Assembly (NCBI GenBank): GCA_958510875.1
Contig: OY294067.1
Span: 141,031,846 to 141,095,845 of the forward strand
Direction of reading: 5' to 3'
Length of the DNA: 64,000 nucleotides
DNA from: Endomychus coccineus
Lineage: Eukaryota > Arthropoda > Insecta > Coleoptera > Endomychidae
Part shown: piece after piece, positions 1-48,755 of the stretch
Layout: each line of letters starts with the position of its first letter
Position numbering within the stretch: the first letter of the stretch is position 1
Notes under the pieces: model-generated
The model's input: only the letters and a program-made list of their open reading frames with translations
The model's database searches: none
Told to the model about the DNA's origin: nothing
Program-made: the position numbers and the translations under genes

Positions 1-396
1 ATTGGCAATGTTGCAAAAAGCGGTTTTTCTTAAATAACTAAAAAACTATAGCTCGGACCGGAAAAAGTTAAATTAGAAAGTTGTAGGTATCAAATAGATC
101 TATCGATTCGTCCCATAATAATTATAAATATAATTAATCTTTTTCGAGTTATATCGAAAAAACCGTTGAAAATCGGGGTATCGAGAAGTCGTTAACTATT
201 ACGTTTTCATATGTATTGTTTCCTGTACATATAGCCCATGGCAAGCTAAGAGAGCACTTCTTTCTTAATTTGAAATTTTGATTATTTTTCAAATACGCCT
301 TATAATAATAAAATGTATTCAAATTTTTCTCTACTTTATTGGAGAATTGCCTCCTAATTAATTTTCTTCTTCTTCTTCTTCTTCTACTTCGATGTT
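1..396. repeat. Left inverted arm of the outer DNA element
   Basis: This stretch is the reverse complement, with scattered mismatches, of 14218-14612. The inner edge of both arms contains the final glutamate-rich codons of the nuclease gene (the run of GAA codons at about 361-385). The arm reaches the window edge, so the outer terminus and any target duplication cannot be seen. With the nuclease gene between the arms, this marks a TIR-bounded element of about 3.7 kb once the 10.9-kb insertion is subtracted. Confidence 0.75.
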
Positions 397-535
397 CTGG
401 TTAAGAAGACTGTCGAAAGCGTCAAGAGATTCTTCATTTAATTAGATGTTAGCAGGAGTTTCGAACTTTTCACATTGTGCTGAGTCACAATGTGTGCAAA
501 TACTCGTACATTTAAGAAATTTTTCTTTACAGCCA
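358..535 (-). pseudogene. 3' end of the FEN1-like nuclease gene, separated by an insertion
   Basis: Read on the minus strand, this piece continues the reading frame that stops at 11427 on the far side of the inserted element. It encodes a cysteine-rich stretch with cysteines at regular spacing (GCK, KCTSICTHC, AQC), then an acidic tail of about six glutamates ending at a TAA at 358-360. An in-frame TAA after PANI interrupts it about 30 codons before that end. The cysteine pattern recalls Tesmin/CXC-type metal-binding tails (family inference). The 6-bp CAGCCA at its inner edge is the duplicated target, so removing one copy and the insert restores one frame. It belongs with 11427-13104. Confidence 0.75.
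530..535. other. Target-site duplication, left copy (CAGCCA)
   Basis: CAGCCA is found directly outside the AGTAG terminus here and again at 11427-11432 outside the CTACT terminus. Six-base duplications are typical of Polinton/Maverick integration by a retroviral-type integrase. The two copies lie in the same codon context of the interrupted nuclease gene, so the duplication is not a chance match. Confidence 0.85.
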
Positions 536-669
536 AGTAGATGTGCTAGGACAGTTCGGGAGCAAAATCACCCTTTTTGCATGTAAATCTCCATAAGGAA
601 ATCTAAGGTTCATTTTACCGAAAACGGTCCCCTTCAAGGTCATCCACAATCACGCATGCGCAGTCATAT

Positions 670-920
670 CGATGGGGTGGTAGTCTATAGTTCTATGAAC
701 TAGTCATCTGTCTATGGTTCCCTCTAACTATGGTTCTGGAAGTCTGTCATCTATCTATGGTTCTTCCCTAACTATGGTCTGATGAAGTCGGTGAACTAGT
801 CATCTGTGTATGGTTCTACCCTAACTATGGTCTGGCGGAGTCTGTGAACTAATCATCTGTGTATGGTTCTTCCCTAACAATGGTCGGATGAAGTCAGTGA
901 ACTAATCGTCTGTGTACTCA
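670..920. repeat. Diverged ~60-bp tandem repeats in the left TIR
   Basis: Units share CATCTGTNTATGGTTC followed by CCCTAACTATGGTCTG and a GAAGTC..TGAACTA segment, repeated about four times with substitutions and truncations. The same block is mirrored in the right TIR at about 11042-11292. It contains no open frame of note. Subterminal repeats of this kind often bind transposase or replication proteins; that role is inference here. Confidence 0.7.
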
Positions 921-929
921 CATTCTACT

Positions 930-1255
930 GAAATGATTTTTCTACACACCGAGATTCGAACCCGGGAAATAAACTCTAAAGTAAGGCGGCTTAACCGCGG
1001 AGGATTTGAATCAATTTAATCTAGTATACAAACACTTCTATTGAAAATGAAATATTTTTTCTACACACACCGAGATTTGAACCTGGGAAATAAACTCTAA
1101 AGTAAGGCGGCTTAACCGCGGAGGATTTGAATCAATTTAATCTAGTATACAAACACTTCTGCTGAAAATGAAATATTTTTCTACACACGGGAATCGAACC
1201 CGAGAAATGAAATCCAAAGCCAGCTCCTTAACCGCTCAGCTATGGAGGAATTGAG
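930..1255 (-). repeat. Three tandem tRNA-like units in the left TIR
   Basis: On the minus strand three ~120-bp units each carry a B-box-like GGTTCGANTC or near variant followed by GTGTGTAGA. The innermost (about 1183-1254) also has an A-box-like TAGCTGAGCGG. A-box to B-box spacing fits a tRNA-derived Pol III promoter, but the acceptor and anticodon stems pair poorly, so these are tRNA-like or SINE-like units rather than working tRNA genes. The other two units keep the B box but have lost half of the A box. Confidence 0.6.
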
Positions 1256-1517
1256 AACAAGCGATTTTAATGTTGTAGATATAACCGCGGGGTATCCGGT
1301 CTGAGTGATAAGTGCGAGTATATTGCAGTCTATATGATGCAGGTATTTTGTTTTACATGACGTCAGTCATGCAGGTATGTCACGAAGCCTACAGCGAGGT
1401 ATGGAATGTGAGGCTGCTTCTTCATAGCGTCAGTCCTAGGGTTTTGAAATAGTGTTGTTTGTACATATCGTCAGTCACGTGATTTTTTGAAAGAGGCGGG
1501 TATTCATCGGAGGTATC

Positions 1518-1913
1518 ATGGGAGGGCTGCTGCTCCTTGAATGCATAGATGGAATGTTATATAGTATAGAAATGATATCTTCTACATTTCTCAAACGCGA
1601 TGTTTATAAGGAAATTACTTTCAAAACGTTTTTTCAAACAGCCTGTACCTTACTTGATTGCTATATTACAAAATGCGATCTCAATCATCTTGAACATATA
1701 GATATGTGGATATTATTTTCAGTATACAAAAATGGGGTTGGGGAGACTTCAAATAAGGTATGGAATGTGGGGTTGTTTAAACATAACGTCAGTCATATGA
1801 ATTTGAATGAAGCTGGCGCGGGCTCCAACGAGGCAGGTGTGTATGTGAGGTTATACAGAGTGTGCAGGTATAATGATGTCTATCAAGCAGGGCTTCAGAT
1901 ATGGTTGTGCTAA
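1518..1913 (+). CDS. 131-codon open frame inside the left TIR, doubtful gene
   Basis: The frame starts at an ATG and runs 131 codons with no recognisable domain, signal peptide or membrane segment. A copy lies in the right TIR on the opposite strand and differs only in the last four residues (IWLC here, ISLR there). Part of its DNA (about 1757-1800) is a diverged copy of 1396-1435, which lies outside the frame, so much of the region looks like repeat DNA. Being identical in both arms is explained by the inverted repeat and is not evidence of selection. I list it as possible only. Confidence 0.2.
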   Translation: MGGLLLLECIDGMLYSIEMISSTFLKRDVYKEITFKTFFQTACTLLDCYITKCDLNHLEHIDMWILFSVYKNGVGETSNKVWNVGLFKHNVSHMNLNEAGAGSNEAGVYVRLYRVCRYNDVYQAGLQIWLC

Positions 1914-2223
1914 ATCATCTCCAAGAGTAATGTATTCAACTTGAAATTATCGTAATGATGCGCGATCCTTCAATGTTAAAGTAGTTTCATAAGTTATCCG
2001 AAAGTAAAATGAATATATAAAATGTTTTTCCAAAATTAGTTCCGAAGTAAACATAATTCGTTATAATATTCATTCATGTATGTTACATAAATTATCCGAT
2101 ATAAATCAAATAAGTTTTGTGCCAGGTTGAACAATATTCACTATCATATTTTGCGGTAGAGCTACAGCTGGTTCGAGAGATAAGAAAGATACGCCGATCA
2201 CCTTCAAACGCGATGAGAATACT

Positions 2224-3414
2224 TTATTTTAAATCACACATGTAGTATGTATATATTCGAATCATATTGATTGTAAATCGGGTAAATCTGGTGTTTTTGG
2301 GGAAATTCAGGAAACTTTCCATCTCTAGTTTGACGTCAACTGTTGATGACTTTATAGCATCGTTTTGTTTTGAACAGTCAATCACAAAAATTGCTCTATT
2401 CTTGAATGCTATATAATCTAACATGGGTTCGCTTATTATTTTATTTGAAAATGATTTCTGGAAATCATAGTACATCTGGTATGCTTCCACGTATTGCTGG
2501 TCGGTGAAATTCAATTTCATTGCTTCATATGGATAACACTCTGAATTCAAGTATAATTTTACATTTAGCAAGTTTGTATTATCGAAATATGCACTGTGCT
2601 TAACAGGATTATTTTTTCGATCAGTTTGGAAAGCTAAAATCACATATCTGGGACGTTCCAAATTCATTGAAGTTTTAACAGCCCAAATGTCACGAGCGCT
2701 CTCCTTCATCAACGGATTTTCATGCAGATCCCAGCTGCGAAATGGAATCAAAATAGGCTTCTCAGCACTCAAATTCTCCAACATTTGAAATTCAACCTGA
2801 TCACTTGGAAACACATGTCGCACTTTTAATGCTATCGTCTTCACATTTATTTTAGCCGTTTTCGTGCCTGTGCTATTAGTATAGCAATCGTTATCGGTTC
2901 GAGACCTTATCAAGCGCAGCTTATGTTTTCCACTCAAGACTTTGTTATAGTCAATGAATAGGCCTAGTAGAAAATTCAACGGTATCCATAAATTGATTTT
3001 ATTATTGTAGACTGAACTCAATGCATCCTTAAATGACCATCCAGAAATAGCTAGAGGTATAGATTCATGTTTGGCATATGTTAGATAAGCTCTGATGGTG
3101 CTGACAATACCAGGATCACGTACTTTGTCTATCTCTTTTCCATTCAATTCATAACTAATATATTCGAAGAGAAACGCTCCGAAATTATTCGTTAGTTTAC
3201 ATTCACCATCACCACTTGCTTCTGGCTGGAATTCTGCCTCGATGAATAAAGCAGACGATGCCAAATCTACCAACACATCTTGTTGATTGATTAATATCTC
3301 AATTTCATCGCTGTTGCCAAAAGATGTTGTGTGTGGATAGTAGGTATGAGTTTCTTCCCGGATGATGTCTTCAATGAAGTTTGGCTCGTTGAATATTTGA
3401 AGTTTTTCCGACAT
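2224..3414 (-). CDS. Major capsid protein, double jelly-roll type
   Basis: This 396-residue protein is the best match in the element for a virion shell protein. It reads as mostly beta-rich sequence without membrane segments. Features seen include an N-terminal HTYYPHTTSFGNSDEIEI region, a DVLVDLASSALFIEAEF strand pair, and the FEYISYELNGKEIDKVRDP segment. This pattern belongs to a capsid family found in many invertebrate Polinton-like or adintovirus-like integrations (family recall, not a search). The ATG at 3414 is preferred to the TTG nine bases upstream. The start overlaps the small gene at 3371-3586, and the last ~19 codons lie inside the left TIR. The frame is open and full length, so this gene is not visibly broken. 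Confidence 0.72.
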   Translation of the reverse strand: MSEKLQIFNEPNFIEDIIREETHTYYPHTTSFGNSDEIEILINQQDVLVDLASSALFIEAEFQPEASGDGECKLTNNFGAFLFEYISYELNGKEIDKVRDPGIVSTIRAYLTYAKHESIPLAISGWSFKDALSSVYNNKINLWIPLNFLLGLFIDYNKVLSGKHKLRLIRSRTDNDCYTNSTGTKTAKINVKTIALKVRHVFPSDQVEFQMLENLSAEKPILIPFRSWDLHENPLMKESARDIWAVKTSMNLERPRYVILAFQTDRKNNPVKHSAYFDNTNLLNVKLYLNSECYPYEAMKLNFTDQQYVEAYQMYYDFQKSFSNKIISEPMLDYIAFKNRAIFVIDCSKQNDAIKSSTVDVKLEMESFLNFPKNTRFTRFTINMIRIYTYYMCDLK

Positions 3415-3586
3415 TGTAACCAAGGGACTTCAAAAAATTTATATTTTCCAATGATAGTGATGCAGAAGCAACCTTCTCCTTCTTCAATGACAGTGATGCA
3501 GGAGCAACCTTCTTCCTCGAGCTCGTTGTAGATAATGACTGATGACCACTATGGAGATGTCTTTTATTGCTAAAATCCAAACCCAT
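3371..3586 (-). CDS. Small basic protein, putative minor virion protein
   Basis: This 71-residue frame starts at an ATG and overlaps the start of the major capsid gene by 44 bases. It is rich in Ser, Lys and Arg and contains an internal duplication: KVAPASLSLKKE followed by KVASASLSLEN. The tail reads NINFLKSLGYNVG. A short basic protein just before the capsid gene, ending in a similar FLxSLG-type segment, is common in related integrations as I recall them, but its job is unknown. It could be a core or cementing protein. The duplicated repeat may reflect recent expansion. Confidence 0.45.
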   Translation of the reverse strand: MGLDFSNKRHLHSGHQSLSTTSSRKKVAPASLSLKKEKVASASLSLENINFLKSLGYNVGKTSNIQRAKLH

Positions 3587-3666
3587 GTTCTCAAGTGATG
3601 GCTACTGCAACCTTCTCAGTTGAATTCCTTTCATATAATGAGTGGTGGTGAGTATTGGATTATTAT

Positions 3667-4409
3667 TTATTGTTGTGAGCCATAATCCCTAGCGATCTTT
3701 TTCAATTCCAATCGTATAATAATTTCTTCTCCACGAAAATTTACCGGTTTCCAATTCTGATCTAAAATATTCAGCGTGATGTTATCGAAGGACTTATGCT
3801 GATGACCGGTAGATAAATAAGATTCTTCGGCTCTATATCAATGGAAAACCCAGGTGGTACAAGAGGTGAGAACTCATATATCGTATGAGCTATCTTATTG
3901 TTATAATATGCTCCTGCGGTTAAGTTACACTCTACGCGTATAGTTTGAACTTTGATTATGTTTATAGGTCGATCAGATACGTGTAGTTCGCGAGATGTCA
4001 ATTTCTTTTTGCTGAATCCCAACAGTTCGCTAATACTATCTTTAGGAATAAAATTCACTTCAAAATCACTCTTCAGCTCTGTGTGTAGAGTGTTGTTGTT
4101 AGATATTATTGATAATTTCCGGTCACGTTCTTCTTGCTTCACTCCTATCCCACAAACTGCACTTTGTATGAAATCCTCGATGTGTGTCAACTCGTAGGAC
4201 CCCGTAGGTATAGTAACTACTTTTTCCTCATCCTTCACATCTTCATAATAAAATTTATTAAAACCTTCTTCAATGTTCGGGATGCTATTGTACGTATGCA
4301 AACCAACAAGTGCGATAGAATAATATGAATGAGGATCTAGTTCTATAGGTGGGTGAAAATCTACAGATAGGCGGGAGCTCTTACCCGTGATAGTGAACGT
4401 CTGAGACAT
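3667..4409 (-). pseudogene. Minor capsid (penton-type) jelly-roll protein, frameshifted near its C-terminus
   Basis: From the ATG at 4409 the frame encodes about 213 residues: MSQTFTITGKSSRLSVDFHP, then a PPIELDPHSYYSIALVGLHT strand region, YNSIPNIEEG, and TIPTGSYELTHIEDFI. These fit the single jelly-roll penton or minor capsid protein that accompanies this type of major capsid. The frame stops at 3771, but the reading frame one step over stays open to a TAA at 3667-3669. It carries a typical C-terminal segment (NFRGEEIIIRLEL), so a one-base-type shift near 3815 splits the gene. The first ATG at 4427 is an alternative start. A TATA-like motif lies about 30 bases upstream. The break implies this copy cannot make a normal penton. 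Confidence 0.65.
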
Positions 4410-4436
4410 GATTGATGAAAACTTCATCAACAATCT

Positions 4437-4447
4437 ATTTATATACT
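4437..4447 (-). promoter_or_regulatory. TATA-like motif upstream of the minor capsid gene
   Basis: On the minus strand the sequence TTAGTATATAAATAG stands about 30 bases before the ATG at 4409. The same TAGTATATAAA core stands before the packaging ATPase gene at about 7476-7486. Repetition of the same motif before two genes supports a shared late-type promoter. Confidence 0.45.
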
Positions 4448-4463
4448 AATAAATGCTAATCGA

Positions 4464-4685
4464 TCACAACTGAAGAGTTAGAGAGGAATTCCAAATATAA
4501 CTGGCTACAATTATAAGTGTTATATTGCATGAAATATCGTGTTGACTGCAAACTTTATCGAATGAATTGATACCCTGAACCTCCTCAACCGTTCTTCTAG
4601 TTTTGCCTCTGGTATTGATTTGAAGTTCAAACGGGAGCTTGTTTATAAGCGTATTGGGAACACCTTCTCCTACGTACGCTTCCAT
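4464..4685 (-). pseudogene. Phospholipase-A2-like (parvovirus VP1-type) domain remnant
   Basis: The 73-residue frame begins at an ATG and contains NTLINKLPFEL (residues 11-21) and GINSFDKVCSQHDIS (38-52). This resembles the PLA2-like domain found in parvoviral VP1 and in several invertebrate Polinton-like integrations, where a His-Asp pair sits after the GIN..D segment. Here His49-Asp50 is kept, but the glycine-rich calcium loop expected between the two segments is not seen; residues 22-37 are charged instead. The remaining C-terminus is unrelated and hydrophobic. I infer an inactive or degenerate enzyme that in relatives may help virions cross endosomal membranes. It could also be an unrelated small protein. 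Confidence 0.45.
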
Positions 4686-4776
4686 ACAGACTGATGAGAA
4701 TTCAAGATTGCACCGTTATTTAACGAGGGGTGGGAGGAAGACCAAAGATCTCAAAATAATCTTTTTATTAATTTTC

Positions 4777-4983
4777 TCAATACAAAAGACTTAAGTATAA
4801 TCTTAACAATATATGTTTCAAATATCTCAATCTTGACTCTTGATTCATCGTCCTAGTCGTATTGCATATGCCTGGGCTTACGTCTTTCCACCTATATTGA
4901 AGTCCTTTTATGTATGTTCGACGCTGGTAAAAGTTCTTTCTTCTGTGCTCATGAAGCTCATGCAAAACTTGTTCTCTACTCAT
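4777..4983 (-). pseudogene. Possible N-terminal remnant of a retroviral-type integrase gene
   Basis: The 68-residue frame starts MSREQVLHELHEHRRKNF and continues RRTYIKGLQYRWKDV. In my recall, an arginine-rich ELH..RKNF..RR...KG...W segment directly precedes the rve catalytic core in integrases of invertebrate Maverick-like elements. After that point the frame runs into 30 unrelated residues and stops, with no D,D-35-E core in any frame nearby. A GTAAGC follows the codon for KD and could be a cryptic donor, but I find no second exon. If the assignment is right, the element has lost its integrase; if wrong, this is an orphan basic protein. Confidence 0.35.
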
Positions 4984-5000
4984 CTTATCAATGTGGAAAT

Positions 5001-5653
5001 CTAGTGTAGAATTAATTTTTTGGGTATATTCACAGGATTTGGAGATGTACGTTTCACAGAGCCCTGCTTTGTTGTTGTGGATGATGAGGGTCTCTTCTTA
5101 GAAGGTTCCACAGATGTCATCCGTCGTTCTAACGCCTCCACTTTACTAGTAATGTCATTTAGACGCATGTTCACACTGTTAAATGTGTTATTGATCTCTT
5201 TCAATTCATTTCTGTTTTCCCTCACACTATCACTGATTGTTTTATACTCTGATTTTATATAGATTCCATTTCATTATATTTATTCTGAATGTCCATCAGA
5301 TGTTTATCAATGTTGAGAATAACCTTCTCATTCGTTAAGTTATGTTCATCCAGGTCCTTGTTGATATCTTTGATCAAATTATCAACCCTAACATTGAAGG
5401 TATCTTTAAGACTGGTTTCCGTTTTCAGATTCAGTTTGTGTGTTAATTTATCAACATACACTTTATTTGCAACATCTCCATCATCATTCGGTGATTTTAC
5501 GTTGCACAATCTACGATTTTCCATATCATAACTCTCATCGCTCGTTAGGAATAATCCTTGCCCGTGAACTTGTTTGAAATTATTATTAAATACATTTGTA
5601 TCATATATCCACATGGAAGAGGAGGCTCTGCCAAACTTATCCATTGAAACCAT
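5001..5653 (-). pseudogene. Fibre-like coiled-coil protein split by a frameshift
   Basis: The first frame (5653 to 5255, 132 residues) starts at an ATG overlapping the end of the upstream gene by 17 bases. It contains the tail-fibre-like segment NVKSPNDDGDVANKVYVD (residues 51-68), followed by heptad-rich sequence. It ends at TAA 5255-5257. The second frame (5225 to 5001) has no ATG of its own near the start; its open frame extends upstream past 5257, overlapping the first. It continues the coiled coil (NNTFNSVNMRLNDITSKVEA) and ends in a basic Ser/Thr/Lys tail. A one-base-type shift between about 5225 and 5265 explains both. NxVxxPxDxxDAVNKxYV-like segments occur in trimeric phage and virus fibres, so a fibre or spike role is inferred. 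Confidence 0.5.
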
Positions 5654-6692
5654 CTTTATAACTGTGATGAATTTGTCTTACACCTGGTTTTTGTTCAATT
5701 ACCCCTGCCTCTATCAATTCTTCTATTATAGAGATTATCTCATTATGGTTACCGGCATGCGAGGATGCAACAAGAAGTCTCAGTCTATCCACCATTTCGT
5801 TAACGTCATCCCAATAAACATATTCGATAGGTTTCTCGTTATATTCAAGCATATCATTTTTGATATATGCACTTCCAGTGTATGTTTTGGTTCTGGGTCT
5901 TTTCATGGAATTAATCAAAGGTTTCAGTACATGTTTGTATTTTACTGTGTATCTTATTCGATCAGCTGGATCGTTATTACGTCTATGGGCACTAGTCATT
6001 TCCATCATTTGACTGTAATTTTTCCCATCTTGCACAGTGTAAGTATCAGGTAGAACATCTCTGTAAAATATCAAATTATACAGTCCTGTGGTACCCTTGA
6101 ACGGAGTAACCTTGATAATTATATTACTCTCACTATCAATTTCTATAGGTTGATTACCCATGAACCATTTGTCTAAAGTTGAATTATATTGCAAACCCAT
6201 TTTATCATCATATCTCTTAACATCATCATCCAATAGGAATCCTTCCAAGTAATAACGTGCTAATGTGGGGTATTGTTGCAAAAACTCCTCTGTAGCCGCT
6301 GCATTATCTTTCTTATGTTTTCTGAATTCTTCACGAATCTGATCGATAGTAGGTTCAGGTGTAAACACATCCTCCTCAGTATCTTGGGGGTTATATACGA
6401 ATTCTTCACCTTCAGTTACAATATTTGGGGTTGGTATGTTCTCCATTTGTGTTGCTGTAGAAAAAATACTTTTAGGTTTAACCAACGAATTTTGTTTGAT
6501 TATTTCAGCATTTCTCGCAATTTCCTCTAGGGGTTTAGATACATTCCTGAACATATTATCTAGAATCTCATCATTTTCGGCTTTACCCAATTTCACAGCC
6601 ATATATTTTTTCCTCACAACGTTTGCTAACTCCCAAATTTTTTTCTTCAATTGTCGTTTTTCCTTTAGCATGTTACTCACACCCACGTCCAT
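5637..6692 (-). CDS. Conserved element protein of unknown function (DUF8207-like)
   Basis: This 351-residue protein starts at ATG 6692. Residues ~1-50 are a basic, helical region (KEKRQLKKKIWELANVVRKK). A linker follows, and then a globular core with LQYNSTLDKWFMGNQPIEID, FKGTTGLYNLIFY and a THR-type motif region (MMEMTSAHRRNNDPADRIRY). This core is the pattern I recall as DUF8207, a family scattered through insect, cnidarian and other invertebrate genomes, always with capsid-type neighbours. No enzyme motif is visible. It lies between the ATPase and the fibre-like gene and overlaps the latter. A structural or assembly role is plausible. The frame is intact. A TATA-rich stretch (about 6720-6730) precedes it. 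Confidence 0.6.
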   Translation of the reverse strand: MDVGVSNMLKEKRQLKKKIWELANVVRKKYMAVKLGKAENDEILDNMFRNVSKPLEEIARNAEIIKQNSLVKPKSIFSTATQMENIPTPNIVTEGEEFVYNPQDTEEDVFTPEPTIDQIREEFRKHKKDNAAATEEFLQQYPTLARYYLEGFLLDDDVKRYDDKMGLQYNSTLDKWFMGNQPIEIDSESNIIIKVTPFKGTTGLYNLIFYRDVLPDTYTVQDGKNYSQMMEMTSAHRRNNDPADRIRYTVKYKHVLKPLINSMKRPRTKTYTGSAYIKNDMLEYNEKPIEYVYWDDVNEMVDRLRLLVASSHAGNHNEIISIIEELIEAGVIEQKPGVRQIHHSYKDGFNG

Positions 6693-6717
6693 GCTGAGCG
6701 GGTTGTCTATTTCAAAT

Positions 6718-6730
6718 GAAGGTATATATA
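6718..6730 (-). promoter_or_regulatory. TATA-like stretch upstream of the DUF8207-like gene
   Basis: The minus strand reads TGTATATATACC about 30-35 bases before the ATG at 6692, inside the 42-base gap that separates this gene from the ATPase stop codon. Its spacing matches the TATA-like motifs before the minor capsid and ATPase genes. Confidence 0.35.
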
Positions 6731-6734
6731 CATG

Positions 6735-7460
6735 TTAGATGTATATATAACTATCAAACCCTTTGCGATAACGTCCTTTGTTCATATCACAGTCTTTGTT
6801 TATCATAAGGAATCCATATTTATCTTTCCAACATACGCTACATATCTCTTTAAATTTCTCGAGTGACATGTCGGTACTTCCATGATCGGTGAATATATGT
6901 TTCAAATTGAGTTCATCCTGTTTGAAAATAATCAAGCAATTGGCATTGTCGCGCAATCCATGTTTTGGACATTTAGCAAAAGACTGACAAAGATAGAAAC
7001 TATCAATTGAGTTGTGTCTCCCTCTTGAAAAATAAGCACGAATTTTCTGCTGTTTCTCAAACATCACGTCATCGAATATTATGATTGAATTAGGCCTCGC
7101 TTCTGTGGGGTCTATGACCTCATCACTTTCGGTACAAGGAAAATATCCAAGCCCCTCAATGTTCTTCAATGTCTCCTTTAGTAACTGGTATTTTGGTTGG
7201 TGTAAAGACTTTGAATATATGTACACGTTTTCAAATTTCAGGCCGTTAGCATCTAACAATAGAGATAACATCACATTTGTTTTCCCACAATTACTTGGAC
7301 CACAGATTATTGTTCGTAGAGTATTAGGCAGCAAAGAGCTGTGACGTTGTGGTTGTTCAACATTCTCATTGCTTGAGCCTAAGTTCATAATACTCAACGA
7401 GTCTTTTTGCTTAACAATCTTCATCATGCCTGAAGGCGAATCGAAATCATACTGGAACAT
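6735..7460 (-). CDS. A32-like (FtsK/HerA) genome-packaging ATPase
   Basis: The 241-residue protein starts at ATG 7460. A Walker A loop, GPSNCGKT, is at residues 54-61, Walker B IIIFDD at 126-131, and a downstream polar motif CQSFAKCPKHGLRDNAN at 158-174 that fits the sensor region of A32-type ATPases. In viruses with double jelly-roll capsids this enzyme drives DNA into the procapsid, and it is one of the defining genes of Polintons and adintoviruses. The length is typical for a compact family member. The frame is intact, and a TATA-like motif sits just upstream. It is the first gene of the minus-strand series, next to the palindrome arrays that could act as its enhancer (inference). Confidence 0.85.
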   Translation of the reverse strand: MFQYDFDSPSGMMKIVKQKDSLSIMNLGSSNENVEQPQRHSSLLPNTLRTIICGPSNCGKTNVMLSLLLDANGLKFENVYIYSKSLHQPKYQLLKETLKNIEGLGYFPCTESDEVIDPTEARPNSIIIFDDVMFEKQQKIRAYFSRGRHNSIDSFYLCQSFAKCPKHGLRDNANCLIIFKQDELNLKHIFTDHGSTDMSLEKFKEICSVCWKDKYGFLMINKDCDMNKGRYRKGFDSYIYI

Positions 7461-7475
7461 ATGTTAATAAGCATT

Positions 7476-7486
7476 TGTTTATATAC
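7476..7486 (-). promoter_or_regulatory. TATA-like motif upstream of the packaging ATPase gene
   Basis: The minus strand reads CTAGTATATAAACAAATGC with the TATA core about 20 bases before the ATG at 7460. It shares TAGTATATAAA with the motif before the minor capsid gene. Confidence 0.45.
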
Positions 7487-7585
7487 TAGATGATGATGTT
7501 ATATTGTGTATGTCTGATCACGCGGTTAGGTACTTCTACGCTTCTGTCAAAATCATGTCTCAAATACATGTTAAATAGGCATGAA

Positions 7586-8215
7586 TGTTGAAACACGTGT
7601 CTGAATGTTGAAACACGTGTCTGAAACACGTGTCTGAATGTTGAAACACGTGTCTGAATGTTGAAACACGTGTCTGAATGCTGAAACACGTGTTTGAATG
7701 CTGAAACACGTGTCTGAATGTTGAAACACGTGTCTGAAACACGTGTCTGAATGCTGAAACACGTGTCTGAATGTTGAAACACGTGTCTGAAACACGTGTC
7801 TGAATGCTGAAACACGTGTCTGAATGCTGAAACACGTGTCTGAATGTTGAAACACGTGTCTGAAACACGTGTCTGAATGCTGAAACACGTGTCTGAAAGT
7901 TGAAACACGTGTCTGAATGCTGAAACACGTGTCTGAATGCTGAAACACGTGTCCGAATGTTGAAACACGTGTCTGAATGCTGAAACACGTTTCTGAATGT
8001 TGAAACACGTGTCTGAATGTTGAAACACGTGTCTGAATGCTGAAACACGTGTCTGAATGTTGAAACACGTGTCTGAAACACGTGTCTGAATGTTGAAACA
8101 CGTGTCTGAATGCTGAAACACGTGTCTGAATGCTGAAATACGTGTCTGAATGTTGAAACACGTGTCTGAAACACGTGTCTGAGTGTTGAAACACGTGTCT
8201 GAATGTTAAAGCATG
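7586..8215. repeat. Minisatellite with about 33 copies of a palindromic ACACGTGT core
   Basis: The array is built from a 13-bp core TGAAACACGTGTC and a 7-bp spacer TGAATGY, giving mostly 20-bp units with occasional 13-bp units where the spacer is missing. Almost every copy keeps the 8-bp palindrome ACACGTGT, which contains the E-box CACGTG; rare variants read ACACGTTT or ATACGTGT. Long open frames on the minus strand across it are by-products of the repeat period. Degenerate outlying copies occur at 8215-8250 and about 9160-9200. It lies immediately upstream of the ATPase promoter, where an enhancer or replication-origin role is possible. Confidence 0.9.
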
Positions 8216-8289
8216 TGTTGAATCATGCGATAAAACATGTGCATGAATGTATTACAAACATTATGATTATTCACATTTTATTCCTCATT

Positions 8290-8625
8290 AGCCCATCATA
8301 GTTCGTGAACGATGATGACGTCATCATCGTTCGTAAACTATGGTCGCCGGGTTGAATCAGTTACTGTCATTGGCTTGAAGCAGTGACGTCATCATCGTTC
8401 GTGAACGATGGTCGCCGGATTGAATCAGTTACTGTCATTGGCTTGAAGCAGTGACGTCATCATCGTTCGTGAACGATGGTCGCCGGATTGAATCATTTAC
8501 TGTCATTGGCTTGAAGCAGTGACGTCATCATCGTTCGTGAACGATGGTCGCCGGGTTGAATCAGTTACTGTCATTGGCTTGAAGCAGTGACGTCATCATC
8601 GTTCGTAAACTATGATCGCCGGATC
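8290..8625. repeat. 68-bp tandem array carrying TGACGTCA and a GTTC/GAAC hairpin
   Basis: Successive TGGTCGCCGG landmarks fall at 8341, 8409, 8477 and 8545, exactly 68 bp apart, with a degenerate fifth at 8613. Each unit contains the perfect palindrome TGACGTCA (a CRE-type site) followed by CATCGTTC-GT-GAACGATG, an inverted repeat with 8-bp arms. At the left edge these fuse into a perfect 26-bp palindrome (8307-8332). A lone related unit occurs at about 9122-9160. The copies are almost identical, so the array is young. Confidence 0.9.
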
Positions 8626-9679
8626 TTCAATTCAATAAAACACCACTTACTCGTCAAAATCCTTATGTATTTCGATACACATAAAGCTATAGTCTGATGT
8701 TCTCACCCACCCCAATTTGTATGCATCATATTGATTTTCCCTACATCAGCGGTAAATATTCTCTCTCTTATCTCGAGTGTTGAAGCTGATAAAGTTGTCA
8801 CATTCAGAATAACGAATATTCATTGATATCAAATCGTTGAAGCTTCTTTCTTCATGTGGGTTATCAATCTCAAACTTGAAGAATCTCAAATGAGTCTCTA
8901 CAGGTAATAATAGTCAAACATATTCATTTAGCCCCGACCAACACACAGGCCCTCGTAGGCTCCCAAATGATAACAATGTTGCATACAAAATAGCTTTAGG
9001 CAATAATCCGTTACATGGGAAATATCGATATTCTCAAATAAAAGGTAATAAAAGTGGGGTAATTTCTACAGCAGATATTTAACCTCAAAGATTCATCTGT
9101 TCAATGTTTGAGTCCTCATCGAACCATCATAGTTCGTGAACGATGGTGACGTCATAGGCTGTTGAATCACGTGCTAAACAAGTGTCTGAATGTTGATAAT
9201 GATCGCTTATGAAGAAGATACTATAGCTCTACTCAATATTCAGACTTTTATGAAGCATGTGTTTGAATGTCATATAGATTAGCGCTTATGAAGATATTCA
9301 TATGGTTATTATCATTATCCACATCTATTCCTCATCATAGTTCTACCTCTTGGGTGGTTGGGGAAATGAGTTCGATCTCTATAAAACTCCCTCGCATATA
9401 TGTTTCCCATTGAAATTGATTGAATTTTATAAAAAGCTAACTATCCTATGAAGAAATGTGTGTCGATGAAAAATGTTTTATTAGTATATTTTTGCATACT
9501 GAAAAAATTATATTAGCACATCTATATGTTTAAGATGATTAAAAATGTATTTTGTTATATAGCAATCGAGCTGTACAGACAGTTCGAATAATCATCGTGA
9601 TGCGTAACACCGCTTCGTCTAGATTCTGTATAGGTATTGGGCTACACCCAGCAGCAGCTAGATTTCGGGTCATATTATG
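8626..9679. other. Non-coding interior of the virus-like element
   Basis: No open frame or domain is visible on either strand. The stretch includes an outlier of each palindromic array (about 9122-9200). A segment at about 9484-9580 matches, with many differences, the part of the right TIR at about 10238-10330, so it is an old internal duplicate of TIR sequence. In autonomous relatives this is where polymerase or integrase genes would be expected. Confidence 0.7.
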
Positions 9680-10046
9680 CGATTTACAATCAATATGATT
9701 CGAATATATACATACTACATGTGTGATTTAAAATAAAGTATTCTCATCGCGTTTGAAGGTGATCGGCGTATCTTTCTTATCTCTCGAACCAGCTGTAGCT
9801 CTACCGCAAAATATGATAGTGAATATTGTTCAACCTGGCACAAAACTTATTTGATTTATATCGGATAATTTATGTAACATACATGAATGAATATTATAAC
9901 GAATTATGTTTACTCCGGAACTAATTTTGGAAAAACATTTTATATATTCATTTTACTTTCGGATAACTTATGAAACTACTTTAACATTGAAGGATCGCGC
10001 ATCATTACGATAATTTCAAGTTGAATACATTACTCTTGGAGATGAT

Positions 10047-10442
10047 TTAGCGCAAACTTATCTGAAGCCCTGCTTGATAGACATCATTATACCTGCACAC
10101 TCTGTATAACCTCACATACACACCTGCCTCGTTGGAGCCCGCGCCAGCTTCATTCAAATTCATATGACTGACGTTATGTTTAAACAACCCCACATTCCAT
10201 ACCTTATTTGAAGTCTCCCCAACCCCATTTTTGTATACTGAAAATAATATCCACATATCTATATGTTCAAGATGATTGAGATCGCATTTTGTAATATAGC
10301 AATCAAGTAAGGTACAGGCTGTTTGAAAAAACGTTTTGAAAGTAATTTCCTTATAAACATCGCGTTTGAGAAATGTAGAAGATATCATTTCTATACTATA
10401 TAACATTCCATCTATGCATTCAAGGAGCAGCAGCCCTCCCAT
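10047..10442 (-). CDS. 131-codon open frame inside the right TIR, doubtful gene
   Basis: Second copy of the frame at 1518-1913, identical over 127 residues and differing at the end (ISLR instead of IWLC). No domain is recognised. See the left copy for the reasons to doubt that it is a gene. Confidence 0.2.
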   Translation of the reverse strand: MGGLLLLECIDGMLYSIEMISSTFLKRDVYKEITFKTFFQTACTLLDCYITKCDLNHLEHIDMWILFSVYKNGVGETSNKVWNVGLFKHNVSHMNLNEAGAGSNEAGVYVRLYRVCRYNDVYQAGLQISLR

Positions 10443-10710
10443 GATACCTCCGATGAATACCCGCCTCTTTCAAAAAATCACGTGACTGACGATATGTACA
10501 AACAACACTATTTCAAAACCCTAGGACTGACGCTATGAAGAAGCAGCCTCACATTCCATACCTCGCTGTAGGCTTCGTGACATACCTGCATGACTGACGT
10601 CATGTAAAACAAAATACCTGCATCATATAGACTGCAATATACTCGCACTTATCACTCAGACCGGATACCCCGCGGTTATATCTACAACATTAAAATCGCT
10701 TGTTCTCAAT

Positions 10711-11025
10711 TCCTCCATAGCTGAGCGGTTAAGGAGCTGGCTTTGGATTTCATTTCTCGGGTTCGATTCCCGTGTGTAGAAAAATATTTCATTTTCAGCA
10801 GAAGTGTTTGTATACTAGATTAAATTGATTCAAATTCTCCGCGGTTAAGCCGCCTTACTTTAGAGTTTATTTCCCAGGTTCAAATCTCGGTGTGTGTAGA
10901 AAAAATATTTCATTTTCAGTAGAAGTGTTTGTATACTAGATTAAATTGATTCAAATCCTCCGCGGTTAAGCCGCCTTACTTTAGAGTTTATTTCCCGGGT
11001 TCGAATCTCGGTGTGTAGAAAAATC
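10711..11025 (+). repeat. Three tandem tRNA-like units in the right TIR
   Basis: The first unit (10711-10782) has an A-box-like TAGCTGAGCGG at 10718-10728 and a consensus B box GGTTCGATTCC at 10760-10770, with a well-paired T arm (CGGG/CCCG). Its acceptor ends do not pair well and no anticodon stem forms. Units two and three keep GGTTCAAATCT and GGTTCGAATCT and have a GCGGTTAAGCCGC hairpin where the D arm would be. They are probably Pol III promoter-like relics, not tRNA genes. Confidence 0.6.
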
Positions 11026-11041
11026 GTTTCAGTAGAATGTG

Positions 11042-11292
11042 AGTACACAGACGATTAGTTCACTGACTTCATCCGACCATTGTTAGGGAAGAACCATACA
11101 CAGATGATTAGTTCACAGACTCCGCCAGACCATAGTTAGGGTAGAACCATACACAGATGACTAGTTCACCGACTTCATCAGACCATAGTTAGGGAAGAAC
11201 CATAGATAGATGACAGACTTCCAGAACCATAGTTAGAGGGAACCATAGACAGATGACTAGTTCATAGAACTATAGACTACCTACCCCATCGA
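11042..11292. repeat. Diverged ~60-bp tandem repeats in the right TIR
   Basis: Mirror image of the block at 670-920, with units sharing GAACCATACACAGATGA and GACCATAGTTAGGG. The two blocks match each other closely across arms, while units within a block differ, so the repeats are older than the last homogenisation of the arms. Confidence 0.7.
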
Positions 11293-11426
11293 TATGACTG
11301 CGCATGCGTGATTGTGGATGACCTTGAAGGGGACCGTTTTCGGTAAAATGAACCTTAGATTTCCTTATGGAGATTTACATGCAAAAAAGGGTGATTTTGC
11401 TCCCGAACTGTCCTAGCACATCTACT

Positions 11427-11432
11427 CAGCCA
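11427..11432. other. Target-site duplication, right copy (CAGCCA)
   Basis: This is the partner of 530-535. It lies in the codons for the VCGC part of the nuclease tail and directly abuts the CTACT terminus of the inserted element. Confidence 0.85.
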
Positions 11433-13104
11433 CATACTTTCGTTTTGCAACCAGTCGCACAGGTACATGATATTTTTTTCATTATTTCGTCCGGTATCAA
11501 CGGTTCCTCATTATAAACTGGCATCGATACATTATCTGCAACTTTCCATCCCCGGTGAGTTATGTCTTTATCGTTGCCCAACCATTTTTGCAATTGCAAG
11601 TAGACTCTGAAGGCATGTTGTCTGGCGGCTGCTTCAGTAGGAGGAAGATTTTCTAATTGAAATGAAGCTCGAGCTGTTGATCGTTTGAAAGATTCAAAGC
11701 GATGTTTATTAAGCGTGCCATCTTTCTTATTGTAATATAGCAAAAAAATTATTTGGCACATATTCCTAGCTATTTCTTCAGGAAGAGCATTATCTTTATA
11801 GAAAACATCTAGTAATTGAAGGTAATCCGGATTAAAATTCAATATTTTCAATAATTTGTTCTTCCCTTGTTTGTACATCGAAGAAACTGTATCACAGCCC
11901 GATACGGCGTGAAGAGATGCTACATATTTTGATAATTCTGGATATTTAAAGCTTGTGTTAGAGTACCATCGATCTACTTCTCGTCCTTTTCCTTTTTTCA
12001 AAAAGAAAATCTTTCTTGTACTGAGAACCAACTGAGTTAAAAGTACAATCAAATCTACATCTTCTCCAAGTACGATAATGTTATTTACTGCACTCAAATT
12101 CGCCGCAGTTTCAATAATAAGTGAATCAGCATCCTCTTCTGCTATTTAAGTTTCAAATCCAGCATTTTGTAATTCAACAGAAAGCATACTTATTAGCCTT
12201 TTCTTGTTTTTATTGTTTGTCAAAAAAGTTGCTTGCTTGTCGGAGATTTTTGTATTTTTATCAAAATAATATTCTTGAGATACATTGTCACGTTGCCGCC
12301 TCATTCTTTCTCATGTTTTTAAATTACTGCTTGTGTCCTCGGGATATCCATCGAATACTATTATTGCTTTCTTATATTTATGTACATATTGTACATATTT
12401 ATTAATAATTTCTTGGGCAAGTATGTTGCGTTGCCAAACAACACGATGAAGCAAACTGCCGCCATCTAAGACATAAATGTCATTTTCGTTTGTCTCTGGA
12501 GGCTGCGGCAAACACTCAAAATTGTCATAAAAACTTGATTTTGCCGTTTTGCGCATTCCATTTTCATCAAACAGAGAGAGTGGAAATGGCGCGAGTTCAT
12601 ATTGCAGATATTTTTTCATATCTTCTTGATTTTTCAAGTTCAATGAAATTCGCTGAAAAATTAACAGCGGATTTATTACGACGACATCGTCTTGAATTTT
12701 TATACTGAATGTCATGGAGCGAAGAGAGCGAACTTTATTTTTTGATGAAGCTTTTACACTTCCAAATGATTTTCCAATGTAGGTCTGCAATATTTTCATT
12801 CCTTTTTCCCGTGCATTATGACAATTTATACTTTCATTGCCGACTACTCCAGAATGAATAGACATTACAAAGTTGGATTCAACGAATGGATCGTACTTTT
12901 CGAAAAATTCATTGATTTTCTGCAAATCTGCCGCGTCTCTTTTTATTCTTGAAGTACGTGTGTCTACATGTTGCTCCGATGTTGAGAACGAAACGTTGCA
13001 AAATTTCTCTATTTCATTACATACTTCAGTTTTTGTGCAACTGTCAAAAAAACTTGACATTTCTGCATCTCTATTGATGCGTAAATATTTACTTTTTTTC
13101 ACTG
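11427..13104 (-). pseudogene. FEN1/XPG-like nuclease gene of the outer element, interrupted
   Basis: The minus-strand frame covers about 560 codons up to the insertion. The N-terminal half ends in an XPG-N-like region (YVLDGGSLLHRVVW; AIIVFDGYPED). The second half has an XPG-I-like acidic pair (EEDADSLI and VLGEDVDLIVLL) and a helix-hairpin-like segment LHAVSGCDTVSSMYKQGK, comparable to the GCD..IxGIGxK part of FEN1. These are the metal-binding positions of flap endonucleases. The tail is cysteine-rich and continues at 358-535. Two in-frame stops (TGA at 12311-12313; TAA near 12148) interrupt it, so it is a pseudogene apart from the insertion. The start is uncertain: there is no ATG at the beginning, and TTTTGGCAG at about 13102 could be a splice acceptor. 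I recall the family as multicopy in invertebrate genomes; its role in a transposon is unknown. Confidence 0.7.
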
Positions 13105-13108
13105 CCAA

Positions 13109-14217: not shown

Positions 14218-14612
14218 AACATCGAAGTAGAAGAAGAAGAAGAAAATGAATTAGGAGGCAATTCTCCAATAAAGTAGAGAAAAATTTGAATACATTTTAT
14301 TATTATAAGGCGTATTTGAAAAATAATCAAAATTTCAAATTAAGAAAGAAGTGCTCTCTTAGCTTGCCATGGGCTATATGTAGAGGAAACAATACATATG
14401 AAAACGTAATAGTTAACGACTTCTCGATACCCCGATTTTTAACGGTTTTTTCGATATAACTCGAAAAAGATGAATGATATTTATAATTATTATAGGACGA
14501 ATCGATAGATCTATTCAATACCTACAACTTTCTCATTTAAATTTTTCCGATCCGAGCTATAGTTTCTTAATTAATTGAGAAAAAACACTTTTTGCAACTT
14601 TGAGAATTTTTT
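14218..14612. repeat. Right inverted arm of the outer DNA element
   Basis: Reverse complement of 1-396 with modest divergence. Its inner edge includes the acidic-tail codons of the nuclease gene in the opposite orientation, so the inverted repeat extends into the end of the coding region. Similarity fades after about 14602 but an imperfect match continues to about 14612, where the left arm meets the window edge. Confidence 0.75.
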
Positions 14613-25024: not shown

Positions 25025-25242
25025 CTTTATGTTTCTTATTCACAGAAACACGTTTTTAAAAAGTTTATTAATATTTATTAAATGAATTTCATAATATAAA
25101 ATATACGTGTTAATTGTTTCAAGTCTATGTCGATTCTGTTTTTTGTTCATGTCTCATGCCAGTGAATTCCGAGATTTGCCATAATAACGCTGATGCTGGA
25201 GTCAGCGGAATATCGTGGGAACGGGAATCACCTTACATAACT
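25025..25242 (-). repeat. 3' LTR of the errantivirus
   Basis: Identical by eye to 32129-32346. In element orientation it starts AGTTATGTAAGG, as LTRs of this group often do, and ends CATAAAG. A purine-rich stretch (TTTTAGGGATGGAGG in element orientation) abuts it on the inside and should prime plus-strand synthesis. A short open frame across it is not a gene. Confidence 0.9.
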
Positions 25243-25251
25243 CCTCCATCC

Positions 25252-26907
25252 CTAAAAGGAACTCGAGGGTGGAATCACTTGAGTTTCGTCGAGAGCCAAC
25301 CTATGGCTTTCTTGAGTTTCCGCTCTATCTAACCGTTTTGTGATTTCTTGTCTGAATTTGTAGAATAAGTAGACTAGAATGCAAATGGTTAATGTCGCGA
25401 TGCTTCCTAAAGACCACAGGGAATATTTCTTATGAAGATTCAAATTTTCGAGGGGTTCTTCTTCTTCTTCTTGTAATTGCAGTTGATGTAATTTGTCAAG
25501 GGAAGTCCTTTCCAATAGTAATTTCTCGACGTGGAGAGTTGGTAACTTAACTAGTTTTATATCTTCTAAGGTTATGGGATTCCCTATTATGGTGCCCTTT
25601 TCATTTTTATAACTGTAAGTCGGTGTTGCAATGGAACATCCTGGTGGGATGGTGAATAAATAGGTTCCTTTCAGTATAGCCACGTTGTCTTCTTGGCAAT
25701 CAGCTTGAATTTTTTGGGATTCTGGGAAAATTCCGATGTAATGTGCCTCGTTTATTTCTTCTATAATTTGTTGTTTTACGTGGACTGGAACTTGGTGACA
25801 GTTGGTTAAAGTTGTTTCGGTTGACAATAGCGATGTTATACAGTCTAGGTTTTCCCGAAGAGGTAGCAAGTGGTTTCTCTTGCACAAGTAGTTTGGCATA
25901 AGGTCGATGCACTCTTCGTCGTGGTACTGGTACTCCATGTTGCTCAGGGTAAGGTAGGAAGAGGGTGGAATTATGATGGATTGATTTTTGTTTGGTATTG
26001 AGTAGAGGTGATAATGGTCAAAAATGTTTGGGTGAACTAAAGGAAAATCAAGTGAAAATATCATTTTCTCGTTAGTCATAAAGACATATACTTCTACTAT
26101 CCTGTAATAATTTAGATATTCTTCTTCGTGGAAAAGTAATTGTGAATTGTCATGAGATTTATGCAAATCATTTATAATTTCTTTTAAATCGCTGGGTGTA
26201 ACAATACTATGATGTAAAGTTTTTAAATAAGCAAAACTTACAGCATTTTCGATTTCAGAAATAAAGCTCAAGAGTGAATCTAAATTGAATTTGATCTGGT
26301 CTAATATGTTATATATTTCTAAATAATGAGAATAGGATGATTCATTAATGGCCTTTCTCAATTCCTCGATTTTTTGTTCAATTAGATTCTGATTGTGTGT
26401 AATGGCTGTCATTGTTTCATTGATATTGTTCATTAACTTTGAAGTCAGTGATATATGTTTATTTACCTTTTTTATAATTTTATTCTGACTGGTTTCTAGT
26501 TTGGAAATACTACCATAAATTTCTTTCGCGTCTCCTTGATCTAAATTTCCTGTGAAGAATTTTATTAAAGAGCCAGCAGGGTTGATTAGGCCTCTCTTTG
26601 GTCTTCCTTTTGGAAAGAGTGAATTAAATTTTTTATTAACCGTATTTACTTCATTTTTTAAATGTGTGTAGACGTTATACAAGTCGTCTACGCTGGAATT
26701 TGTTCTATTGATTAATTTACCCACTTGATCATAACGAGTAGTTATTGATTGGACTTGGTATCTCAAATGGTCAATTTGAATGTAATGGAGAAAAGTATGG
26801 GATGCGATTTTGATTCTAGCAGTTCCCAATTTAAAGGGAAGGATACCAGGGTTATCTTTGAGGTTATGAATCTGAACTTTCTGTGCCGTTATCGAAGGAA
26901 GTATCAT
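25252..26907 (-). CDS. env: Envelope fusion glycoprotein, baculovirus-F-like
   Basis: The 551-residue frame from the ATG at 26907 encodes a class I-type envelope precursor related to baculovirus F and gypsy Env. A furin-type site RPKR lies at about residue 102-105. It is followed by a fusion-peptide-like GLINPAGSLIKFFTGNLD. Long heptad-rich helices follow (about 120-260). A membrane anchor (SIATLTICILVYLFYKF) lies about 33 residues from the end and is followed by a charged cytoplasmic tail. The N-terminus is too short for a full signal peptide, and TTTTACAG at about 26914-26921 looks like a splice acceptor, so a leader is probably added from an upstream exon. The frame overlaps the end of pol by about 44 bases. 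Confidence 0.85.
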   Translation of the reverse strand: MILPSITAQKVQIHNLKDNPGILPFKLGTARIKIASHTFLHYIQIDHLRYQVQSITTRYDQVGKLINRTNSSVDDLYNVYTHLKNEVNTVNKKFNSLFPKGRPKRGLINPAGSLIKFFTGNLDQGDAKEIYGSISKLETSQNKIIKKVNKHISLTSKLMNNINETMTAITHNQNLIEQKIEELRKAINESSYSHYLEIYNILDQIKFNLDSLLSFISEIENAVSFAYLKTLHHSIVTPSDLKEIINDLHKSHDNSQLLFHEEEYLNYYRIVEVYVFMTNEKMIFSLDFPLVHPNIFDHYHLYSIPNKNQSIIIPPSSYLTLSNMEYQYHDEECIDLMPNYLCKRNHLLPLRENLDCITSLLSTETTLTNCHQVPVHVKQQIIEEINEAHYIGIFPESQKIQADCQEDNVAILKGTYLFTIPPGCSIATPTYSYKNEKGTIIGNPITLEDIKLVKLPTLHVEKLLLERTSLDKLHQLQLQEEEEEPLENLNLHKKYSLWSLGSIATLTICILVYLFYKFRQEITKRLDRAETQESHRLALDETQVIPPSSSF

Positions 26908-31944: not shown

Positions 31945-32110
31945 AGAACAGTAAAAGAAATATAGGAAATAGGAAATGAGCAACTTACATTAAAATAGTT
32001 ACTTTCATCTTCTTCTCCACTTCAACCAAGTTTTCCACGATGGATCTTAGGTTCTTCCGAATAAACAGTTGGGACTGACGGGTTATTTGCGATAAATGCC
32101 CTTTCAGAAA

Positions 32111-32128
32111 TCCTCGTCGACTGCGCCA
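32111..32128 (-). other. Errantivirus primer-binding site
   Basis: In element orientation TGGCGCAGTCGACGAGGA directly follows the 5' LTR. It fits a tRNA 3'-end complement and defines the LTR edge at 32129. Confidence 0.75.
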
Positions 32129-39990: not shown

Positions 39991-39991
<1 letters not shown>

Positions 39992-47212: not shown

Positions 47213-47334
47213 ATAAGGTCTATTGTCATTGAGTAATTAAAAAAAAACTGGAGAAACCATTTTAGGGGAACAATTCTTTTTAATTGAAACCAACCACTTT
47301 TCCCATTCAACGCTGTCGAAGGTTCCTTTTACTT

Positions 47335-48754: not shown

Positions 48755-48755
48755 G

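What the first reader, a model, noticed from the sequence alone, without database searches (positions are those of the whole stretch)
536..11426. A 10.9-kb capsid-encoding element whose insertion site can be read codon by codon
The element interrupts a minus-strand reading frame. The right flank ends KTKVCG and the left flank resumes GCKEKF in the same frame, with CAGCCA duplicated. Taking out the insert and one CAGCCA restores one continuous cysteine-rich tail. This fixes the ends (AGTAG/CTACT) and a 6-bp duplication without any comparison to other genomes. It also shows that a retroviral-type integrase placed a virus-like DNA here. The element combines very long TIRs with a capsid and packaging module.
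Basis: partly seen in the sequence, partly recalled or inferred. Interest (0 to 1): 0.9.

Follow-up and report, generated by a model that had tools for sequence, protein, structure and literature searches.

The report
Capsid half of a split Polinton
An integrated, partly decayed virus-like DNA (a Polinton) carries only the shell-building genes, while a matching DNA polymerase sits on separate elements of the same genome with the same ends, which suggests a virus-like element whose genome is divided in two.

Summary
The insert is an arthropod Polinton (Maverick): double-jelly-roll capsid protein (fold predicted), minor capsid candidate, A32 ATPase, DUF8207 protein. Polymerase is absent; integrase and protease survive only as remnants. 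In the same 906-Mb genome I grouped TIR matches into 27 elements. Twenty carry capsid-set genes; four carry a family-B polymerase instead, one only DNA of that second type, two are unresolved. None was seen with both, but only nine capsid-type and two polymerase-type elements were read nearly through. One capsid-type sister keeps a retroviral-type integrase core. Both types share TIRs from the first base (89-95% identical) and show 6-bp duplications. Capsid genes look under purifying selection (median dN/dS 0.15-0.44; noncoding control 0.71). Best reading: one segment of a two-part (bipartite) Polinton family; this copy is a dead deletion derivative. Main rival: an unsampled one-piece master. 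The whole-genome polymerase search did not complete.

The parts
530..535 (.). Left copy of the 6-bp target duplication CAGCCA
536..2280 (.). Left terminal inverted repeat, begins AGTAGA; shortened on its inner side by a deletion of about 1.34 kb relative to sister C4:620766
2224..3417 (-). Double-jelly-roll major capsid protein ORF; from residue 378 on it no longer matches relatives (its last codons are TIR sequence)
3667..3837 (-). C-terminal piece of the minor capsid protein in another frame (frameshifted here)
   Evidence: alignment with 30 of the 322 relatives; single frame of 257-259 codons in several sisters
3771..4409 (-). Minor capsid (penton-like) candidate, main piece, starting at MSQTF
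   Evidence: 322 relatives with E <= 0.001
4477..4527 (-). Remnant of the adenovirus-like protease C-terminus (weak)
   Evidence: 5 of 3000 random segments score as high; longer protease-like ORF in sister C2:84.05
4635..4715 (-). Remnant of the N-terminus of a basic protein
   Evidence: 62% over 29 aa to the L052 ORF, E 4e-5
4885..4980 (-). Remnant of the integrase N-terminus; core missing
   Evidence: tblastn of sister piece L059:3287-3670, 84.5% over 71 aa, of which about the last 32 are integrase and the rest upstream sequence
5001..5270 (-). Fibre-like coiled-coil protein, second piece (one frame of about 225 codons in several sisters)
5255..5653 (-). Fibre-like protein, first piece; short match to phage tail-fibre families
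   Evidence: PHROG E 3.8e-4 over 32 residues
5637..6692 (-). DUF8207-type protein (PF26634 precomputed on its relatives), function unknown
   Evidence: 233 relatives; no PDB fold match at E <= 0.001; best BFVD match a Cotesia bracovirus DUF8207 protein
6735..7460 (-). A32-type packaging ATPase
   Evidence: Pox_A32 6.4e-6, above cut-off
7582..8223 (.). 20-bp tandem repeat array; this spacer is shared with a polymerase-type element
   Evidence: L045
8316..8624 (.). 68-bp tandem repeat array
9680..11426 (.). Right terminal inverted repeat, ends TCTACT; in sister copies the TIR continues inward (2.1-3.4 kb)
11427..11432 (.). Right copy of the target duplication CAGCCA
11433..13108 (-). Interrupted nuclease-like pseudogene (resumes at 529 going down)

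Best explanation
The insert is a non-autonomous, deletion-bearing copy of the capsid-coding type of a Polinton family that exists in this genome as two element types with the same long TIRs. SHOWN: one type carries ATPase, DUF8207 protein, fibre-like protein, minor and major capsid protein and, in one sister, an integrase core, a basic protein and a protease-like ORF. The other type carries a family-B DNA polymerase (1,267 codons, open in one copy), a GNAT acetyltransferase and, in the copy read through, a zinc-finger-like ORF. Ends of both types are AGTAG/CTACT; perfect 6-bp duplications are shown for five capsid-type copies (this one included) and one polymerase-type copy. INFERRED: the polymerase copies both types from the shared ends, the integrase inserts both with 6-bp staggered cuts, and the capsid proteins package both, so that the two types together act as a bipartite virus or virus-like transposon. 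The integrase core is missing in 16 of the 17 capsid-type copies in which that place was fetched; a common ancestral loss is inferred. This copy also lost about 1.34 kb (MCP tail plus inner left TIR) and has split fibre and minor capsid genes, so it looks dead as a virus although its ends are complete.
For: Capsid module. Sister integrase and remnants: (rve 5.5e-12; Chromo 9.7e-5, just under its cut-off). Polymerase: PF03175 E 3.3e-29 on residues 561-1106, open frame in C3:99350744-99368921. Shared ends: outermost 1.3-1.4 kb of the window element against polymerase-type C2:81.66 94.6% and C3:99.35 89-90%; C1:128.33 91% over the outermost 535 bases; the tandem-repeat spacer is shared at 92%. 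Cargo of 27 grouped elements: 20 capsid type, 4 with polymerase matches, 1 with second-type DNA only, 2 unresolved, 0 with both. Selection: median dN/dS ATPase 0.15, MCP 0.22, minor CP 0.27, DUF8207 0.37, fibre 0.44, control 0.71; polymerase 0.12 from one pair. Duplications.
Against: Only part of the copies was seen: 40 of 1,255 first-look candidates were scored, and the whole-genome polymerase search did not complete in any of 12 tries. Only 9 capsid-type and 2 polymerase-type elements were read nearly through (one of the latter, C1:128.33, with a 1.6-kb gap); 11 capsid-type and 3 second-type elements were sampled by single stretches and assigned by nearness to one TIR arm. No polymerase-type copy with an integrase was found, and the one integrase core found is split between frames. 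Deletion derivatives of a one-piece master would look similar. C1:187.67 lies next to capsid-type DNA (L062:1-508); I read it as nested because an AGTAGG end starts at 513, but a fused copy is not excluded. The selection control is itself below 1 in 44 of 55 pairs, pairs are not independent, and some rows come from the same element.
Confidence: 0.6

Rival explanations
1. Both types are deletion derivatives of an ordinary one-piece Polinton master (polymerase, integrase and capsids in one element) that was not sampled or is lost from this assembly; they spread with its enzymes.
For: Known Mavericks carry all core genes in one element (vertebrates, PMC8097293, passages; Drosophila-associated adintovirus 1, PMC8363768, passage). 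Gene losses are common here. Both types share TIR and right-hand spacer as if cut from one genome.
Against: 0 of 25 classified elements were seen with both modules (most of them sampled in part). The polymerase-type copies share the same acetyltransferase neighbour (protein 95-96% in two; DNA 91% in a third), so they form a lineage. Capsid genes on elements without polymerase seem to stay under purifying selection.
Confidence: 0.3
2. Capsid-type elements are satellites that use enzymes of several unrelated Polintons and need no particular partner.
For: A different Polinton-like set (27-39% identity for ATPase, DUF8207 and MCP) lies beside polymerase-type element C1:128.33 (L046). Outer ends of copies differ (AGTAGA... 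against AGTAGG...).
Against: A polymerase type with matching TIRs over more than 1.3 kb is present, and a capsid-type sister has an integrase core of its own.
Confidence: 0.08
3. Assembly join or chance resemblance.
Against: Perfect duplication, exact TIR ends and five other elements with the same end structure; no N in the window.
Confidence: 0.01

Closest known systems
Polintons / Mavericks (vertebrate set of PMC8097293; passages read)
   Same: 6-bp target duplications, AGT-type end motif, DJR capsid protein, minor capsid protein, ATPase; in one sister integrase core and protease-like ORF
   Different: There intact elements are 12.7-24.6 kb with TIRs of 46-1,447 bp and hold polymerase and capsid modules together; here 10.9 kb (three sisters with fixed ends 12.26-12.53 kb), TIRs 1.75 kb (sisters 2.1-3.4 kb), and the polymerase is on another element
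Maverick-type genes in Cotesia sesamiae bracovirus (BFVD R9XLG5, R9XLH4); Dupuy et al. 2011 seen only as a reference-list entry
   Same: First-ranked viral structure matches of both the MCP (E 2.6e-16) and the DUF8207 protein (E 7.4e-13)
   Different: TM-scores are low (0.39 and 0.35) and the wasp locus itself was not examined
Adintoviruses of insects (PMC8363768; passages read)
   Same: Insect-associated Polinton-like DNA with capsid and ATPase genes
   Different: Adintovirus 1 is a single 14.5-kb contig with polymerase and integrase together
Bidnaviruses / Vesanto virus (PMC8363768 passages; the two-segment make-up of bidnaviruses is recalled); Acheta domesticus segmented densovirus (PMC10267136, search listing only)
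   Same: Insect DNA viruses with genes divided between segments; the bidnavirus polymerase is of Polinton origin (PMC11071308, passage)
   Different: Single-stranded DNA and parvovirus-type capsids, not a DJR capsid or integrated TIR elements

Membership tests
Polinton/Maverick | 6-bp target site duplication | tested here: met
   of 8 elements with fixed ends: 6 perfect (window included), one 5 of 6, one 3 of 6
Polinton/Maverick | TIRs with AGT-type end motif | tested here: met
   AGTAGA or AGTAGG, 5 of 6 bases of the vertebrate (AGT)2 motif (PMC8097293)
Polinton/Maverick | DJR major capsid protein | tested here: met
   tail lost in this copy
Polinton/Maverick | single-jelly-roll minor capsid protein | tested here: inconclusive
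   conserved family beside the MCP; fold not predicted; profile hit to adiponectin (jelly-roll fold recalled) at E 1e-4
Polinton/Maverick | A32/FtsK-type packaging ATPase | tested here: met
   Pox_A32 6.4e-6
Polinton/Maverick | retroviral-type integrase in the element | tested here: not met
   only an N-terminal remnant here; core (rve 5.5e-12) in sister C2:84.05
Polinton/Maverick | adenovirus-like protease in the element | tested here: not met
   weak remnant only; the sister has a protease-like ORF, Peptidase_C5 E 0.014, under the cut-off, 53% to the N-terminal part of P0244
Polinton/Maverick | protein-primed family-B polymerase in the same element | tested here: not met
   no hit here or in 8 sisters read nearly through; present on separate elements with the same TIRs. 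Protein priming itself was not tested. So: a non-autonomous member of a Polinton family, not a complete Polinton
Bipartite virus | both parts needed and packaged | not testable with these tools
   sequence only

The most novel reading that the evidence does not exclude
A bipartite double-jelly-roll DNA virus (segmented Polinton): one segment builds the particle and carries the integrase, the other carries the polymerase; both are integrated separately by the same integrase through shared 2-3 kb TIRs and are kept by mutual dependence. Two searches (open-access PMC, titles and abstract starts seen) listed no description of a segmented Polinton.
Probability: 0.5. Interest if true: 0.9.

Novelty: new variant of a known kind. 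Interest (0 to 1): 0.74.

Why it matters
Polintons are thought to lie near the origin of several eukaryotic DNA virus groups and are described as one-piece genomes. A family divided into a capsid element and a polymerase element with common ends would show how a double-stranded DNA virus can become segmented, and would recall bidnaviruses, which took their polymerase from Polintons (PMC11071308, passage). It would also mean that some 'polymerase-less' capsid loci in insect genomes are segments and not debris.

Tried and rejected
Copy-back origin of the long TIR. I first read the near-match between the MCP truncation point (2286) and the TIR inner end (2280) as an inverted copy of the right end capping a broken left end. 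Sister copies refute it: their TIRs are longer (2.1-3.4 kb), and the sequence missing here lies between MCP and TIR in sister C4:620766, so this is a plain deletion with a few filler bases.

tRNA genes: ARAGORN (whole window) and Rfam at E <= 1 (left arm) found none, though consensus A and B boxes are in the TIR. The pattern scans found no relatives of MCP, DUF8207, ATPase, nuclease piece or polymerase in IMG/VR, none of the MCP in GTDB contigs, and no copy of the TIR end in either; polymerase against phage records: no match. PDB sequence searches of MCP, ATPase, nuclease piece, DUF8207 profile, the 106-aa piece and polymerase gave nothing useful. Pfam at E <= 10 on six ORF pieces and at E <= 0.01 on three more between 8560 and 9727 showed no integrase or polymerase. 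Pfam missed the polymerase over its full length and found it in the catalytic part. Empty nuclease site: not reached.
Full report
OBSERVATION. The insert at 536-11426 is real. The arms 536-2280 and 11426-9680 are 99.5% identical over 1,747 columns, end exactly at AGTAGA/TCTACT, and are flanked by CAGCCA on both sides. The minus-strand frame continues across the site as stated, but the interrupted frame is a pseudogene: two in-frame stops right of the insert, one left of it before its apparent end. It also sits between outer inverted repeats (6-384 and 14602-14224, 95%), so it is probably part of another, older mobile element.

DAMAGE IN THIS COPY. From residue 378 on the MCP loses its similarity to the 120 listed relatives (mean 2.7 identical of 20, against 11.8 in the block before); a loose tail motif is found in 115 of these 120. 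Sister C4:620766 shows why: about 1.34 kb, comprising the MCP tail and the inner part of the left TIR, is missing here, with a few filler bases at the joint. The C-terminus of the minor capsid protein lies in another frame and the fibre-like gene is split, while several sisters have these frames open. Between fibre and minor capsid gene only remnants remain: an integrase N-terminus, the start of a basic protein and a weak protease tail. Sister C2:84.05 has there, in about 1.6 kb more DNA, an integrase core (rve 5.5e-12), a chromodomain-like piece, a basic protein and a protease-like ORF. Its integrase is split between frames. Remnants like the window's were matched in 15 other capsid-type copies; the core was seen in one of 17 (a further core-like hit in L022 lies outside the element). 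I describe this only and mended nothing.

THE FAMILY. The window lies at C1:141031846-141095845 of a 906-Mb assembly. A 751-base TIR probe gave 79 matches (40 of 1,255 candidates scored, so a lower bound). I grouped them by hand into 27 elements: 13 with both arms (this one included) and 14 seen by one arm. TIRs of the ten sister pairs examined align over 2.06 to 3.43 kb at 98.0-99.7% (longest match each; some run to the end of the fetched stretch), so very long TIRs belong to the family. Of the window and seven other elements whose ends I could fix, six have a perfect 6-bp duplication, one has 5 of 6 and one 3 of 6. I could not fix the outer ends of C3:105.99, C3:92.54, C1:182.9, C1:129.98 (N beside it) and C2:84.05, and did not try the rest. 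One copy is inserted in another copy of the family at the site that is window 5091-5096.

TWO TYPES. Twenty elements carry genes of the capsid set. Element C3:99350744-99368921 (18,178 bp, duplication AAGTTA, ends AGTAGA/TCTACT) has none at E <= 1e-8. It carries an open frame of 1,267 codons whose catalytic part is DNA_pol_B_2 (3.3e-29), a GNAT acetyltransferase (1.3e-5, above cut-off) and a C2H2-like ORF (7e-4, under cut-off). C1:128.33 carries the same polymerase at 87-94% identity with a broken frame; C1:187.67 and C2:81.66 its start and the acetyltransferase; C5:51.98 only matching non-polymerase DNA in the one stretch fetched. C1:181.5 and C5:45.13 stay unresolved. No element was seen with both sets. 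The window and eight sisters were read nearly through, as were two polymerase-type elements (C1:128.33 with a 1.6-kb gap); the others were sampled by stretches of about 3-5 kb beside one arm, so their absences are not tested.

SHARED ENDS. The outermost 1.3-1.4 kb of the window element is 94.6% identical to polymerase-type C2:81.66 and 89-90% to C3:99.35, from the first base. By contrast three capsid-type sisters with fixed ends gave no match of 120 bp or more in the window's outer 640 bases and match further in: the arms seem to have recombined between lineages. The tandem-repeat spacer inside the right TIR is shared with polymerase-type C1:128.33 (92%).

SELECTION. Between copies median dN/dS is 0.15 (ATPase, 86 pairs), 0.22 (MCP, 70), 0.27 (minor CP, 86), 0.37 (DUF8207, 148), 0.44 (fibre, 118), 0.12 (polymerase, 1 pair), against 0.71 in a noncoding control (55 pairs, 44 of them below 1). 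Pairs are not independent, some rows come from one element, and pairs with dS <= 0.01 or at most 60 codons were dropped. The pattern suggests that capsid genes were maintained while copies without polymerase multiplied.

MECHANISM. Shown: two cargo types, common ends, 6-bp duplications, an integrase core in one capsid-type sister, a polymerase in the other type. Inferred: polymerase and integrase act on both types through the common ends and the capsid packages both. Alternative: an unseen one-piece master supplies everything. End structure and duplication size fit Polinton integration (PMC8097293, passages).

COMPARISON. Intact vertebrate Mavericks are 12.7-24.6 kb with TIRs of 46-1,447 bp and their core genes in one element (PMC8097293). 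Polinton-like viruses mostly lack pPolB and RVE integrase but encode other replication proteins (PMC11071308); I recognised none in this element. Polymerase-less defective copies as such are to be expected (96% of vertebrate loci are degraded, PMC8097293); what is unusual is a separate polymerase lineage with the same TIRs. In two literature searches no title or abstract start described a segmented Polinton; most subscription papers are not covered.

VERDICT. Observation right; interpretation right in outline but incomplete. This copy looks dead; its family is the interesting thing.

Noticed in passing
window about 10710-10790 and its mirror about 1190-1250; two further units in each arm: tRNA-like sequence with consensus Pol III A and B boxes in the TIR (A-B pair in 0 of 1000 shuffles; three B boxes per arm, 0 of 1000); not recognised by ARAGORN or Rfam at E <= 1
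   Followed up: partly
window 1518-1913(+) and 10047-10442(-); L013:2163-2546, L014:2125-2505: A 131-codon ORF inside each TIR arm, kept as 126-127 codons in the TIRs of polymerase-type element C3:99.35; 12 of 1000 shuffles give as long an ORF
   Followed up: partly
window 25025-32346: Gypsy-type provirus with identical 218-bp LTRs, 4-bp duplication ACGG and open gag-like, pol and Baculo_F-type envelope ORFs (4.4e-25): a recent errantivirus-like insertion
   Followed up: partly
window 39991-49974: Second LTR element with 1.2-kb LTRs 96.6% identical and an RT-integrase ORF
   Followed up: no
L046:1377-5459 (C1:128343376-128347458): A different, divergent Polinton-like set (ATPase, DUF8207, MCP, protease-like matches, 27-59% identity) beside polymerase-type element C1:128.33
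   Followed up: no
L062:1-513 (C1:187667500-187668012): Replication-type element C1:187.67 begins beside capsid-type DNA (equivalent of window 3949-4456, start of the minor capsid gene): nested insertion or fused copy
   Followed up: partly
window 6-384 and 14224-14602: Inverted repeats (95%) around the nuclease-like pseudogene with a cysteine-rich tail; resembles an Academ-type transposon from memory, not tested
   Followed up: partly
P0018 residues 400-613: A Molorchus minor gene model runs from the MCP into a further ORF, so in a relative a gene may follow the MCP
   Followed up: no
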